Below, piece after piece: positions 7,552 through 11,534 of a DNA stretch of 13,873 bases. Below the pieces are notes generated by a model. The model did not search any database, was not told the origin of the DNA, and saw only the letters and a program-made list of their open reading frames with translations. Each line of letters opens with the position of its first letter. Positions within the stretch are counted from its first letter, which is position 1. This stretch comes from a bacterium (GTDB lineage Bacteria > 4484-113 > JALSIF01). Made by a program: the position numbers and the translations under genes. The stretch spans positions 1 to 13,873 of the forward strand of contig JALSIF010000217.1 in the NCBI GenBank assembly GCA_026981635.1, in the 5' to 3' direction.

Positions 7552-7986
7552 ATGGTGGTCCTGGCGCTGGATGTGGGACGCCGCAGGGTAGGCATTGCCC
7601 TAGTGGACGAAGGCGGTCGTCCCTGGATCCTTCGCCGGGTGAACCTTGACAGCCTGGTCCGTGAGGTGGAGGAGATCCTCGCCCACTTTCCGGTTCGCCG
7701 GATCCTCATCGGACGGGGCACCGGATACCGGCAGGTGCGCGAGATGATAGCTCCGCTCCTTGCGGACAGGAGAGTTGAGGTGTTTGGGGTAGACGAGGAA
7801 GGAACCACGATCAGGGGCAGGCAGAGGTTCGTAAGGAATCGGCCGTGGTATCTGAGGCCATTTGCTCTGCTACTGATCATCCTTGGCTACCCCGTGGACC
7901 ACTATGCGGCGCTGGAGATGGCGCTGAGCTATAATGGCATGGTTAACCTACCTAGTGAGGTTGCTAGCGGCGGGAGCGGCTGTTAG
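7552..7986 (+). CDS. YqgF/RuvX-like RNase H-fold protein
   Basis: This 144-residue protein begins with the RNase H-like strand LALDVGRRRVGIAL, carrying Asp7. VDEEGTT (80-86) matches the DE-x-x-TT motif of YqgF, and a last acidic residue is Asp116 in PVDHYAALEMAL, where YqgF has a D-x-x-AA helix. Authentic YqgF/RuvX matures the 5' end of 16S rRNA. The middle motif is unusual, with IGRGTGY in place of the canonical VGLP. An aromatic and hydrophobic stretch (99-112) replaces the usual charged segment between the second and third motifs. It may therefore be a diverged paralogue rather than the housekeeping enzyme. ATG 7552 is chosen because the promoter places transcription start at or beside it. 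The 3' end contains a TATAAT that may serve the porin. Confidence 0.72.
   Translation: MVVLALDVGRRRVGIALVDEGGRPWILRRVNLDSLVREVEEILAHFPVRRILIGRGTGYRQVREMIAPLLADRRVEVFGVDEEGTTIRGRQRFVRNRPWYLRPFALLLIILGYPVDHYAALEMALSYNGMVNLPSEVASGGSGC
7930..7935 (+). promoter_or_regulatory. Possible -10 element for the SLH porin, inside the yqgF-like gene
   Basis: A perfect TATAAT lies in the 3' part of the preceding coding region, in codons for Tyr-Asn. It would produce a leader of about 220 bases ahead of the porin. No -35 hexamer is recognisable, so this may be coincidence. Confidence 0.35.
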
Positions 7987-8160
7987 ACAAGTGGGGGTGA
8001 GAAGTCCACTCAGGCTGTCGGCCGTGCCCGCAAGCTGGCAGAGGTAAACCCAACAAGAGGGACCCGAGCGATACGGGAGGAAGAAGGCGGAGGAAGGAAA
8101 CCTAGGAGACTTCCCAATGCCGCTTCCTCACGGGGAGCGAGGGTCCACAAGGAGGAAGGC
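7987..8160 (+). promoter_or_regulatory. Structured 5' leader of the SLH porin with alternative pairings
   Basis: This 174-base stretch has no gene and can form several helices. CTGTCGGC (8015-8022) pairs with GCTGGCAG (8034-8041), with two G-U pairs. CCCG (8063-8066) pairs with CGGG (8074-8077). GGACCC (8060-8065) can instead pair with GGGTCC (8141-8146), and GGAAG (8092-8096) with CTTCC (8110-8114). CTTCCTC (8123-8129) is fully complementary both to GAGGAAG at 8077-8083 and to GAGGAAG at 8152-8158. The second copy overlaps the ribosome binding site, so the two folds exclude each other. The segment is too short and lacks the conserved cores for RNase P RNA, and I do not see a complete cobalamin-riboswitch consensus. 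A translational switch or a stabilising leader for an abundant envelope protein is plausible but unproven. Confidence 0.5.
8149..8155 (+). promoter_or_regulatory. Strong ribosome binding site of the SLH porin
   Basis: AAGGAGG is a near-perfect Shine-Dalgarno sequence five bases before ATG 8161. It fixes the start and agrees with the high expression expected of a porin. Part of it lies in the complementarity with 8123-8129. Confidence 0.9.
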
Positions 8161-9885
8161 ATGAAGAAGATCGGTCTTCTTCTAACCGCCACGCTGGCCA
8201 TGGTGCTGGTGGTGGCAAGCGTCGCCTTCGCCGGATTCAAGGATGTGCCCGCCAACCACTGGGCCTACGACGAGCTGGAGAAGCTCCAGGAGATGGGCAT
8301 CGTTGAGGGCTACCCCGGCGGCTACTTCAAGGGCGACAACACCCTTACCCGTTACGAGATGGCGGTGCTGGTCTACCGCCTCTACAACCAGCTCAAGAGT
8401 GCGCTGGAGACGGGGAAGGGAGTTGACCCGGAGGCGCGCGCTGCCATTGAGCGCCTGGCCAACGAGTTCCGGGACGAGCTGGAGGACCTGGGCGCCCGCA
8501 TTGACAATCTGGAGGGGCAGGTCCAGGACAACACCAGCGAGATCGCCAAGCTCAAGGAGCTGGTCTCTACCAAGGGCACGGTGGACTACACCGTCATGTA
8601 CAGGGCGGGCTACTTCATTGACACTCCGGACGACAACCTGGCTCAGGACGTCGCCCAGGACTGGGCAATGAACGTTCACAAGTCCTTCAAGCTGGACGAG
8701 TGGACCAGCTTTGACATGAGCCTCACCTACGGTGAGGACCAGGGCTTTGGCATCTCCAGCGTCCCGGGAGGAAACAACGAGTTCGCCAACCCCAACATCA
8801 ACCCTGGCTTTACCAGCCCCAGCTCGGCTAGCTTCATCGTTGACACCTTCTACGCCACCTGGGACCTGCACCGCATCTTCCCCAACTTTGCCGACTCCTT
8901 TACCGCCACCCTGGGCCGTCAGTACTTCAGCCTGGGTGAGTTTGGTCTGGCGGGCGACAACGGCTACCGGTCCAACTACGGTCTGGTGCTGAGCGCCAAC
9001 TGGGATCCCAACTGGGAAGTAAACGTCGGTCTCTTCCGGCTGGAGAGCGCAACCGCTGCGCTGGTCCCGGCGGGAGGCGCAGCCATGAACCAGCCCTACG
9101 GTACCTTTGGCAGCACTGCCCGCTTCGGTCTGGGTGGTTTTGCCTCCAACTCCGATGACTTTGACTACATCCAGATCTCCTATTCCAGCGGTACCGGTAC
9201 CATCCCCGGCCACGAGGACCAGTGGGGAGCTTCGCTGGTCTGGGTACCTGAAGGTGCTGGCTACGAGCACTACATTGACATCTCCGCCCACACCGAGATC
9301 AAGTGGTTTGACGAGAAATGGCTAAACGGCTTCCGCGGTGAGTGGTACTGGATGTTTGAGAACATCAACGACCAGGACCCCAACGACCCTGCCGAGTTCG
9401 TCACCAACCCGCTGGACGGCTTCACCAACAACGGTGGAGTCCTTGAGCTGGATATCTACAACGACGGCAACACCAAGTTCAGCTTTGGCTGGGCTTGGCT
9501 GCCCCAGTTGGAGGGCCTGCCCGCTTTTGCCAACGTGGACAACGACCCCTTTAGCGAGTTTGAGGTCACCACTACCCCGGATGCCCAGAACCTGGCCATT
9601 AACGTCAGCCGCTACGGCAAGAACTACTTCCCGGCCGACTTCGTCGGCGGCGGCATCTCCTGGGAGACCACCTGGAGCAACAAGCTCTACACCCGTCTCA
9701 CCGCCTACCTGGGCAGCCGCATTGACGCCATCGCCGATGACCGTCCGGCGGCGGCTCGCCTGGAGTTCCGCTACCCGTGGACCAAGTCCACCACGCTGGG
9801 CCTTGACATCATCACTGCTGGCACCACCGACAACTTCTCCGATTCTGCCACCCAGCTTCGCGGCTGGGCTCTGCTAAACTGGTAG
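8161..9885 (+). CDS. SLH-domain outer-membrane porin-like protein
   Basis: This 574-residue exported protein starts with a clear signal peptide (1-24, cut after AFA). One SLH domain follows (about 25-78: FKDVPANHWAYDELEKL, then GIVEGYPGG and TRYEMAVLVYRL), which in such proteins binds peptidoglycan-linked polymer. A charged, heptad-like coiled-coil segment is at about 95-135. The rest is rich in alternating Tyr/Trp/Phe, Gly, Asn and Asp, as expected of an outer-membrane beta-barrel, and ends in Leu-Asn-Trp, the usual aromatic C-terminus. Family knowledge: SLH-barrel porins tether the outer membrane to the wall in Thermus, Negativicutes, Synergistota and Cyanobacteria. Codon choice is strongly biased to C-ending codons (AAC, GAC, TAC, TTC), fitting high expression. 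It has a long structured leader and a strong terminator, so it is probably transcribed as a single gene. Confidence 0.92.
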   Translation: MKKIGLLLTATLAMVLVVASVAFAGFKDVPANHWAYDELEKLQEMGIVEGYPGGYFKGDNTLTRYEMAVLVYRLYNQLKSALETGKGVDPEARAAIERLANEFRDELEDLGARIDNLEGQVQDNTSEIAKLKELVSTKGTVDYTVMYRAGYFIDTPDDNLAQDVAQDWAMNVHKSFKLDEWTSFDMSLTYGEDQGFGISSVPGGNNEFANPNINPGFTSPSSASFIVDTFYATWDLHRIFPNFADSFTATLGRQYFSLGEFGLAGDNGYRSNYGLVLSANWDPNWEVNVGLFRLESATAALVPAGGAAMNQPYGTFGSTARFGLGGFASNSDDFDYIQISYSSGTGTIPGHEDQWGASLVWVPEGAGYEHYIDISAHTEIKWFDEKWLNGFRGEWYWMFENINDQDPNDPAEFVTNPLDGFTNNGGVLELDIYNDGNTKFSFGWAWLPQLEGLPAFANVDNDPFSEFEVTTTPDAQNLAINVSRYGKNYFPADFVGGGISWETTWSNKLYTRLTAYLGSRIDAIADDRPAAARLEFRYPWTKSTTLGLDIITAGTTDNFSDSATQLRGWALLNW

Positions 9886-9983: not shown

Positions 9984-11534
9984 ATGGGTTTTGCTCGCTG
10001 GAAGGGCCGCTGGGGGTGGCTGCTTGGGGTACTGGTGGCGGTTGTTGTGGCCACCCCTGCCTTTGCCACCGAGATTGTCGCTGGCCACACCCGCTATGAG
10101 AGCCGCACCAAGACCTACTACTTCTCCCAGGGGGTACGGCTTACGAGCGATGCCCTGATCCCCGGCGATACCCTGGAGGTGGAGGCTGAGGAGCTGGTCT
10201 TCAGCGCGAGTGCCCTTTCGCTCAGGGTGGTCGGGGAGACTAAGCTGAGGTTGCTTGAGAGCGGGATTGAGCTTACTGGCCAGGACCTGGTCTATGAGGG
10301 ACGGAGTGGGGAGGGAAGGCTCAGTCAGGTTAAGGCGGTGCTACCGGCCAGGCTGGGGGAGGAGATCCGCCGGGGGATCGCCGACACGGCGAGCATCTCT
10401 CCCGCTTCGGCCACTCCAGCCGCCACCGCCGCCCGGCGCTCGCTGGCCATGCGCGGTACCCTCTATGTCCTCTCCGGCGAGCTCCGCTTCAGCCGCCGGT
10501 CAGGTGGGCGAGGGATACTTAACTTTGAGCAGGTAAGGCTCTCCAACACTCCGCGGGAGGAGACTGACATTTTCGTCTCCCTGCGACGGCTTACCCTGGT
10601 GCAGGGGGAGGCCATCTACCTTGAGGGGATCGCCCTCCACTTCCGAGGTATCAAGGTCTTCTCCTGGCCCAGCTACCGGATTAATCTTCGTCCTACCGGG
10701 GGTGGCTTTGACCCCGGCCTGCCCCGCTACCGCTCGGACCGGGTGGTGGGGCGGGAGATCTCCCTCTCCCCCAGCTACTCGGTTGGGGACGGGCGGCTCT
10801 TTGTGGACCTCAACTACACCACCCGCCGCAGCACCTTCGCCGGCTACCGGCTGGTGGTGGGGGAGGCCGAGCGGAGTCTGGGGGAGCTTGCTCTAGCCAC
10901 CGGCCGCTTTACCGTACGCGACCGGGAGGGCGGCTCCATCCTGCTCAGCCGTGACTGGGAGGTTGAGCTGAGGAGGGAGTTTGTGGGCGGGGGGTGGATG
11001 CGGCGGCTGATGCTCCTTGGGGCGGCGGGCAGGCTTACCGAAATCAGCTTCCCCGAGGAGGGGAGGCGCGAGGTGGAGGTGAGCAGGCGCATGCTGGGGG
11101 GAGAGATGGACCTTGCTCCCCTGCCCCTTACTGACCGGCTCAGCCTCAATATGCTTTTGTTTGCTCGCCTGTATGACTACTCGGGGCAGGGGGATGACTA
11201 CCGGGTGGGGGGGGGACGGGTGAGCCTGGACTACCGCACCCCCTATGGCTCAAACTTCGTCGGCTTTACCCTCAGGGAGCGCACCGGCCCCACTCCCCTG
11301 GTGAGCGACCGGAGCTTTCTGGAAAAGGAGCTCAATGTGGGATTGGTGGGCAGGGTTTCCCGCCGCTATCTCTTGGGAATGGACTACCGGCTGGACATGG
11401 AGCGAAACCGCACCGACAAGCTGAAACTTTCCCTCTACTACCTCTTTCCCAACTACAACCTGCAGTTCTTCTATGAGGCGGTGGACCAGACCTTCGGGGT
11501 CACCCTGGGGCTGCTGGGCACCGATCACCTCTGA
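9984..11534 (+). CDS. LptD/OstA-like outer-membrane protein
   Basis: This 516-residue exported protein has a signal peptide at 1-28 (hydrophobic core LLGVLVAVVVA, cut after AFA). Residues about 29-125 look like the OstA/LptA beta-jellyroll of lipopolysaccharide transport proteins (GHTRYESRTKTYYFSQGV, then LEVEAEELVF and ELTGQDLVYEGRSG). An Ala/Pro-rich break is near 135-150. Further OstA-like strands follow, with FRGIKVFSWPSYRINL at about 218-233. The remainder is rich in Arg, Tyr and Gly with alternating strands, suggesting a beta-barrel. Proteobacterial LptD is around 780 residues, so this is a short version. It could alternatively be a barrel protein with an OstA-like N-terminus and a different cargo. 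It appears to be transcribed alone, and it ends seven bases before the stop of the convergent glycosyltransferase gene. The assignment rests on pattern and landmarks, not on a search. Confidence 0.65.
   Translation: MGFARWKGRWGWLLGVLVAVVVATPAFATEIVAGHTRYESRTKTYYFSQGVRLTSDALIPGDTLEVEAEELVFSASALSLRVVGETKLRLLESGIELTGQDLVYEGRSGEGRLSQVKAVLPARLGEEIRRGIADTASISPASATPAATAARRSLAMRGTLYVLSGELRFSRRSGGRGILNFEQVRLSNTPREETDIFVSLRRLTLVQGEAIYLEGIALHFRGIKVFSWPSYRINLRPTGGGFDPGLPRYRSDRVVGREISLSPSYSVGDGRLFVDLNYTTRRSTFAGYRLVVGEAERSLGELALATGRFTVRDREGGSILLSRDWEVELRREFVGGGWMRRLMLLGAAGRLTEISFPEEGRREVEVSRRMLGGEMDLAPLPLTDRLSLNMLLFARLYDYSGQGDDYRVGGGRVSLDYRTPYGSNFVGFTLRERTGPTPLVSDRSFLEKELNVGLVGRVSRRYLLGMDYRLDMERNRTDKLKLSLYYLFPNYNLQFFYEAVDQTFGVTLGLLGTDHL

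What the first reader, a model, noticed from the sequence alone, without database searches (positions are those of the whole stretch)
7987..8160. Porin leader with one CTTCCTC element able to pair with two GAGGAAG copies, one over the ribosome binding site
The 174 bases before the SLH porin contain CTTCCTC (8123-8129). It is perfectly complementary to GAGGAAG at 8077-8083 and also to GAGGAAG at 8152-8158, which covers the Shine-Dalgarno sequence. The first pairing frees the ribosome binding site and the second hides it. Upstream helices at 8015-8041 and 8063-8077, and a longer-range GGACCC/GGGTCC pairing (8060-8065 with 8141-8146), could act as a sensing part. This is the layout of a translational switch. 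Long regulatory leaders are known for Thermus S-layer mRNA, so a leader with a job is plausible. The caveat is that purine-rich repeats arise easily near strong ribosome binding sites.
Basis: partly seen in the sequence, partly recalled or inferred. Interest (0 to 1): 0.6.

Follow-up and report, generated by a model that had tools for sequence, protein, structure and literature searches.

The report
Conserved porin-leader RNA with ribosome-docking loop
The stretch before this outer-membrane porin gene belongs to a previously unlisted structured RNA shared by related uncultured bacteria; it displays a ribosome-binding sequence in a loop and, in five relatives, folds back onto the porin's own start site, so it probably controls how the porin is translated.

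Summary
GAGGAAG occurs three times in the leader, not twice; a 7-bp match to the ribosome binding site (RBS) is near chance; and folding gives the RBS-hiding pairing probability 0.000.

Leaders of orthologous SLH porins (OmpM type, 36-42% identical, same YqgF/RuvX-like gene upstream) in the ten held genomes of this candidate phylum (UBP7, by one record title) show more. In five (L034-L038) an H-type pseudoknot is supported by covariation: 11 of 14 pairs have compensatory changes, 0 of 500 shuffles match. Stem S1 frames a loop with AAAGGAGGTGAY, complementary to the 16S 3' end. Stem S2, abutting S1, pairs the loop with the porin RBS. An arm ends in a hairpin with loop GNAAC-N2-3-GGNNA.

The window keeps the position, a strong S1 (7970-7982 with 8019-8031), GGGGGTGA (7993-8000) and the hairpin (8092-8114), but no detectable S2.

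Best reading: a cis-acting translational leader in which 30S docking in the loop competes with S2 closing the porin RBS. No Rfam match; not found in 279 genomes outside the phylum. Structure well supported; mechanism inferred.

The parts
7552..7986 (+). YqgF/RuvX-like gene; its last bases form the 5' strand of stem S1
   Evidence: Pfam RuvX 29.1 bits, cut-off 29.2; ORF conserved upstream of the porin in all ten genomes
7970..7982 (+). stem S1, 5' strand (core; minimum-energy fold extends it to about 7961)
   Evidence: 12 pairs with one 1x1 mismatch against 8019-8031, position-specific p 0.0085; pairing probability 0.66-1.0 over 7976-7982
7993..8000 (+). GGGGGTGA, counterpart of the relatives' GGAGGTGA loop segment, 168 bases before the ATG
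   Evidence: relatives have it at -158 to -181; can pair with the 16S 3' end of relatives with one G-U pair (16S ends seen; the window's own 16S is not in the assembly)
8019..8031 (+). stem S1, 3' strand (extended to about 8041)
8060..8065 (+). base of the arm, 5' strand GGACCC (pairs 8141-8146)
   Evidence: pairing probability 0.98-1.0
8077..8083 (+). arm, 5' strand GAGGAAG (pairs CTTCCTC 8123-8129)
   Evidence: pairing probability 0.94-1.0
8092..8114 (+). conserved apical hairpin GGAAG-GAAACCTAGGAGA-CTTCC; loop 8097-8109
   Evidence: loop GNAAC-N2-3-GGNNA also in L034-L038 and L042
8141..8146 (+). base of the arm, 3' strand GGGTCC
8150..8160 (+). porin Shine-Dalgarno region AGGAGGAAGGC; predicted to pair with 8174-8183
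8161..9885 (+). SLH-domain porin, OmpM type, 574 aa
   Evidence: Pfam SLH; profile matches to chains of 8bys/8bym/8bz2 and 7zgx over the SLH and stalk region

Best explanation
The leader is a cis-acting translational control RNA of the porin mRNA. In relatives it folds as an H-type pseudoknot: stem S1 holds open a loop carrying AAAGGAGGTGAY, a strong single-stranded docking site for the 3' end of 16S rRNA, and the bases just 3' of it (S2, stacked on S1) pair with the porin RBS. A 30S subunit docked in the loop would cover the S2 5' strand, free the porin RBS and could move to it; without docking, S2 keeps the RBS closed. The arm with its conserved hairpin holds the parts in place or binds a factor. 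In the window S1, the loop segment, the arm and the hairpin persist, but S2 seems lost or moved, so docking may remain without the RBS clamp. Shown: conserved helices, loop sequence, positions, complementarity to 16S rRNA. Inferred: 30S docking, competition with S2, direction of the effect, role of the hairpin.
For: S1+S2 in five relatives: 95.7% of cells paired, 11 of 14 pairs with changes on both sides, 0/500 shuffles, slid controls at most 51%. S2 position-specific p 0.001-0.016 in each genome. S2 lies directly against S1 (0-1 base between) and ends 8-10 bases before the ATG in all five. Loop complementary to 16S 3' ends of four relatives over 11-12 bases; the sequence occurs only 0-4 times per genome. 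Window: same place (-168), S1 p 0.0085, z -4.85, conserved hairpin loop. Precedents: tisB standby pseudoknot (PMC7708055), S. meliloti metA distant SD acting as standby site (PMC9373788), rpsO pseudoknot docked on the 30S platform (PMC3858243).
Against: No S2 in the window at the expected place (p 0.98; wider search 0.71). S1 alone is weak in single genomes (p 0.004-0.37). Only L042 of the four f2 relatives keeps the hairpin and none has a clear anti-16S loop. The porin's own SD looks strong in most genomes, so it may not need help. The alignment for one search was assembled from segments chosen for complementarity. No experiment and no mapped transcript.
Confidence: 0.5

Rival explanations
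1. Factor- or ligand-controlled leader: the conserved hairpin loop GNAAC-N2-3-GGNNA binds a protein or small molecule that decides whether S2 forms. CsrA is the obvious protein candidate, since GGA motifs are common in the leaders and at the SD.
For: Loop conserved across four families; CsrA domains in 9 of 10 genomes, usually two per reading frame; ANGGA enriched in some leaders (L034, L035, L037, L040).
Against: The GGA in the loop is GGC in L035 and L036, and GGA/ANGGA counts are not above chance in L036, L038 or the window. The loop consensus is longer than a CsrA site. No known riboswitch matches.
Confidence: 0.25
2. Leader-peptide control: the strong SD drives a short upstream ORF whose translation opens the leader or couples to the porin start.
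For: A TTG 7-9 bases after GGAGG opens ORFs of 9-50 codons in L034-L036 and L038; in L035 and L036 the ORF ends just past the porin ATG.
Against: No start codon at that place in L037 or the window, and between L035 and L036 the middle of the peptide is frame-shifted, so no peptide is conserved.
Confidence: 0.12
3. One reading: CTTCCTC alternates between GAGGAAG at 8077 and GAGGAAG over the RBS.
For: The sequences exist as described; anti-RBS segments after the hairpin reach p 0.05-0.08 in the window, L035, L036 and L038.
Against: RBS pairing probability 0.000; a 7-base match is near chance; a third copy lies at 8090; nothing comparable above chance in L034 or L037.
Confidence: 0.05
4. A structured but unregulated leader that only stabilises the mRNA of an abundant outer-membrane protein.
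For: Strong folding, abundant class of protein, no sensor identified.
Against: It does not explain the anti-16S loop or the covarying helix at the RBS.
Confidence: 0.08

Closest known systems
E. coli tisB standby site with 5' pseudoknot (PMC7708055)
   Same: A pseudoknot in the leader, about 100 bases or more upstream of a closed RBS, proposed to be needed for 30S loading
   Different: There S1 protein and 30S bind the pseudoknot and a single-stranded region; here the loop itself carries an anti-16S sequence and S2 pairs with the RBS. Different gene, no homology shown
S. meliloti metA leader, distant SD acting as standby site (PMC9373788)
   Same: An SD far upstream of the used start codon is proposed to raise local 30S concentration; a pseudoknot controls its accessibility
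   Different: That pseudoknot is a SAM-II riboswitch and hides the distant SD; here the SD lies in the open loop and the pseudoknot closes the near RBS. No SAM-II match in Rfam searches
E. coli rpsO (S15) pseudoknot docked on the 30S (PMC3858243)
   Same: A folded pseudoknot presents an SD to the 30S platform and must be unfolded before the start codon is reached
   Different: There the SD presented is the gene's own and S15 stabilises the fold; here a second, distant SD is presented and no protein is known
OmpM, SLH porin and outer-membrane tether of diderm Terrabacteria (PMC10628300)
   Same: The downstream gene: signal peptide, SLH domain, long C-terminal region
   Different: The words leader, untranslated and RuvX do not occur in that paper's main text

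Membership tests
Any Rfam 15 family | covariance-model score at or above the family's gathering score | tested here: not met
   No gathering-level match in the window; permissive searches of the window leader and of nine relatives gave only sub-threshold matches
UBP7 porin-leader pseudoknot (defined here from L034-L038) | anti-16S segment about 160-180 bases before the ATG | tested here: met
   window GGGGGTGA at -168; relatives -158 to -181; one G-U in place of A-U
UBP7 porin-leader pseudoknot (defined here from L034-L038) | stem S1 framing that segment | tested here: met
   window 7970-7982 with 8019-8031, p 0.0085
UBP7 porin-leader pseudoknot (defined here from L034-L038) | stem S2 between the loop and the porin RBS | tested here: not met
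   window best 4-5 pairs, p 0.71-0.98; so the window is filed as a divergent relative, not a full member
UBP7 porin-leader pseudoknot (defined here from L034-L038) | apical hairpin loop GNAAC-N2-3-GGNNA 51-64 bases before the ATG | tested here: met
   window loop 8097-8109, 51 bases before the ATG
Standby-site pseudoknot (tisB type) | 30S or S1 binds the leader and this is needed for translation | not testable with these tools
   needs toeprinting or binding assays
CsrA-regulated leader | ANGGA in hairpin loops and at the SD | tested here: inconclusive
   enriched in some leaders only; loop GGA absent in L035 and L036
OmpM-type SLH porin | N-terminal SLH domain followed by a C-terminal barrel | tested here: inconclusive
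   SLH and stalk matched; the barrel was not matched by sequence and no structure was predicted

The most novel reading that the evidence does not exclude
A ribosome-gated leader: a pseudoknot that carries an anti-16S sequence in one loop and clamps the porin RBS with its second stem, so that free 30S subunits themselves switch on synthesis of the outer-membrane tether and porin in a candidate phylum.
Probability: 0.3. Interest if true: 0.75.

Novelty: new variant of a known kind. Interest (0 to 1): 0.55.

Why it matters
It adds a covariation-supported cis-regulatory RNA that is absent from Rfam, in a phylum known here only from metagenome-assembled genomes. It joins two ideas seen apart before, a standby SD and an RBS-clamping pseudoknot, in one compact element. 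If the mechanism holds, it links synthesis of an outer-membrane tether to ribosome availability and gives a clean, mutable test of sequence-specific standby binding.

Tried and rejected
Group II intron or other known RNA: suspected from the sequence, not found by Rfam. DNA-level homology search: nothing convincing beyond the window itself; protein orthology was needed. Hairpin model R1 recovered only the four leaders it was built from and missed the window, L034 and L042, which have 13-base loops. The G009 look-alike L108 lies in an RNase J-like frame (RNase J named by eye). S1/loop model R2 in 289 genomes: outside the phylum only weak hits (best 26.8 bits); those inspected looked like ordinary SDs, coding sequence or chance. 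An ECF sigma-factor leader (L105) in the window's genome looks similar, but no inspected relative shows it. A leader ORF was rejected as the general explanation. Promoter and terminator scan gave nothing useful. A literature search for UBP7 listed no relevant paper.

Full report
Observation. The motifs exist at the stated coordinates, but the leader holds a third GAGGAAG at 8090-8096. A 7-bp RBS complement appears in about 5% of shuffles. In the ensemble CTTCCTC is in the arm (0.94-1.0) and never on the RBS (0.000); the RBS instead pairs with codons 5-8 of the porin. Folding 7960-8190 rather than from 7987 reveals a long helix that begins in the YqgF/RuvX-like gene, and the z-score goes from -2.35 to -4.85 with 0 of 200 shuffles.

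Relatives. The held phylum has ten genomes. Record titles call the relatives Planctomycetales or simply bacterium, and one names UBP7; I use UBP7 as a label only. All ten carry the porin (36-42% identical to the window's) next to a YqgF/RuvX-like ORF (several of these ORFs score below the Pfam cut-off or not at all, but they align across the set). The porin profile matches chains of entries 8bys, 8bym and 8bz2, which I take, without checking, to be the OmpM structures of PMC10628300.

What is conserved. In L034-L038 (two families, f3 and f4) the leader has AAAGGAGGTGAY 158-181 bases before the ATG, framed by stem S1, followed by an S2 strand that abuts S1 (0-1 base between) and pairs with the porin RBS 8-10 bases before the ATG. 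Counted on an alignment assembled from the pairing segments (A4; I chose the pieces and left out the middle and part of the loop): 95.7% of cells paired, 11 of 14 pairs with compensatory changes, 0/500 shuffles; sliding the partner drops it to 51% or less. Because I chose the segments by looking for complementarity, the percentage paired is biased upward; the compensatory changes between families and the fixed place of S2 are the stronger evidence. Position-specific shuffles give p 0.001-0.016 for S2 in each genome and 0.004-0.37 for S1, so in single genomes S2 is the better supported stem, and S1 rests mostly on covariation.

The anti-16S sequence. 16S genes of four relatives end GGATCACCTCCTTT (two full-length 16S genes end at the same places), so the loop is complementary over 11-12 bases. 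AAAGGAGGTGAY occurs 0-4 times per genome, some of these being the 16S gene itself. The same kind of sequence also serves as an ordinary strong SD of pilin-like genes (L131-L133), so its presence alone proves no special role; what is unusual is its place in a pseudoknot loop far from the start codon.

The hairpin. A loop GNAAC-N2-3-GGNNA at the tip of the arm occurs in the window, L034-L038 and L042. With an AG/CU closure and at least three pairs, the only other copy in about 895 kb of scanned strand is a coding look-alike. This figure pools overlapping loci and was made after seeing the motif, so it is an estimate.

The window as a member. It has the position of the G-rich anti-16S-like segment, S1 (p 0.0085), the arm and the hairpin, but S2 at the expected place is absent (p 0.98; 0.71 in a wider search). 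Either S2 was lost, or it uses a helix I cannot recognise, or this family works differently. Of the f2 relatives only L042 keeps the hairpin, and none shows a clear anti-16S loop.

Mechanism. Known leaders support each half: tisB needs a pseudoknot and a distant loading site, metA a distant SD, rpsO a pseudoknot docked on the 30S. I infer that 30S docking in the loop competes with S2. The direction of the effect and the role of the hairpin are open; the CsrA and leader-ORF rivals are weaker for the reasons given.

Distribution. Rfam has no match. Model R2 over 289 genomes, ten of them from the phylum, gives strong hits only in four of the five pseudoknot leaders, and these four trained the model. 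Held-out L038 scored only 15.8 bits and the window leader was not found, so R2 is narrow and its silence elsewhere is weak evidence of absence.

Noticed in passing
   Followed up: yes
L105, minus strand, about 70-110 bases before an ECF sigma-factor ORF (G000:C103): The window's own genome has CTACTCTGCAAAAAGGGGGTGATAACCTTGAGATAG before a sigma-factor gene, with CCTTG able to pair with CAAGG at its RBS: the same design, but seen in one genome only.
   Followed up: partly
L069-L078 (CsrA loci; G000:C68:2404-2730): CsrA domains occur in pairs, apparently two per reading frame, in nine of ten genomes: a tandem CsrA protein.
   Followed up: no
L086 and L096, around position 1501: AAAGGAGGTGAT followed by a tiny ORF ending SEVGEA (MSDLSSEVGEA and MHDCTSEVGEA) in two genera: a possible conserved short peptide or leader.
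   Followed up: no
L131, L132, L133, around position 1500: Pilin-like genes carry AAAAGGGGGTGA as an ordinary SD, so long anti-16S sequences are used elsewhere in the phylum.
   Followed up: partly
7987-8160: The porin reading frame is open without a stop from the end of the YqgF/RuvX-like gene to the ATG (58 codons); no in-frame start codon lies in that stretch.
   Followed up: partly
9984-11534: ORF after the porin, 516 aa with a signal-like start and no Pfam or NCBIfam match; by eye it resembles outer-membrane assembly proteins.
   Followed up: no
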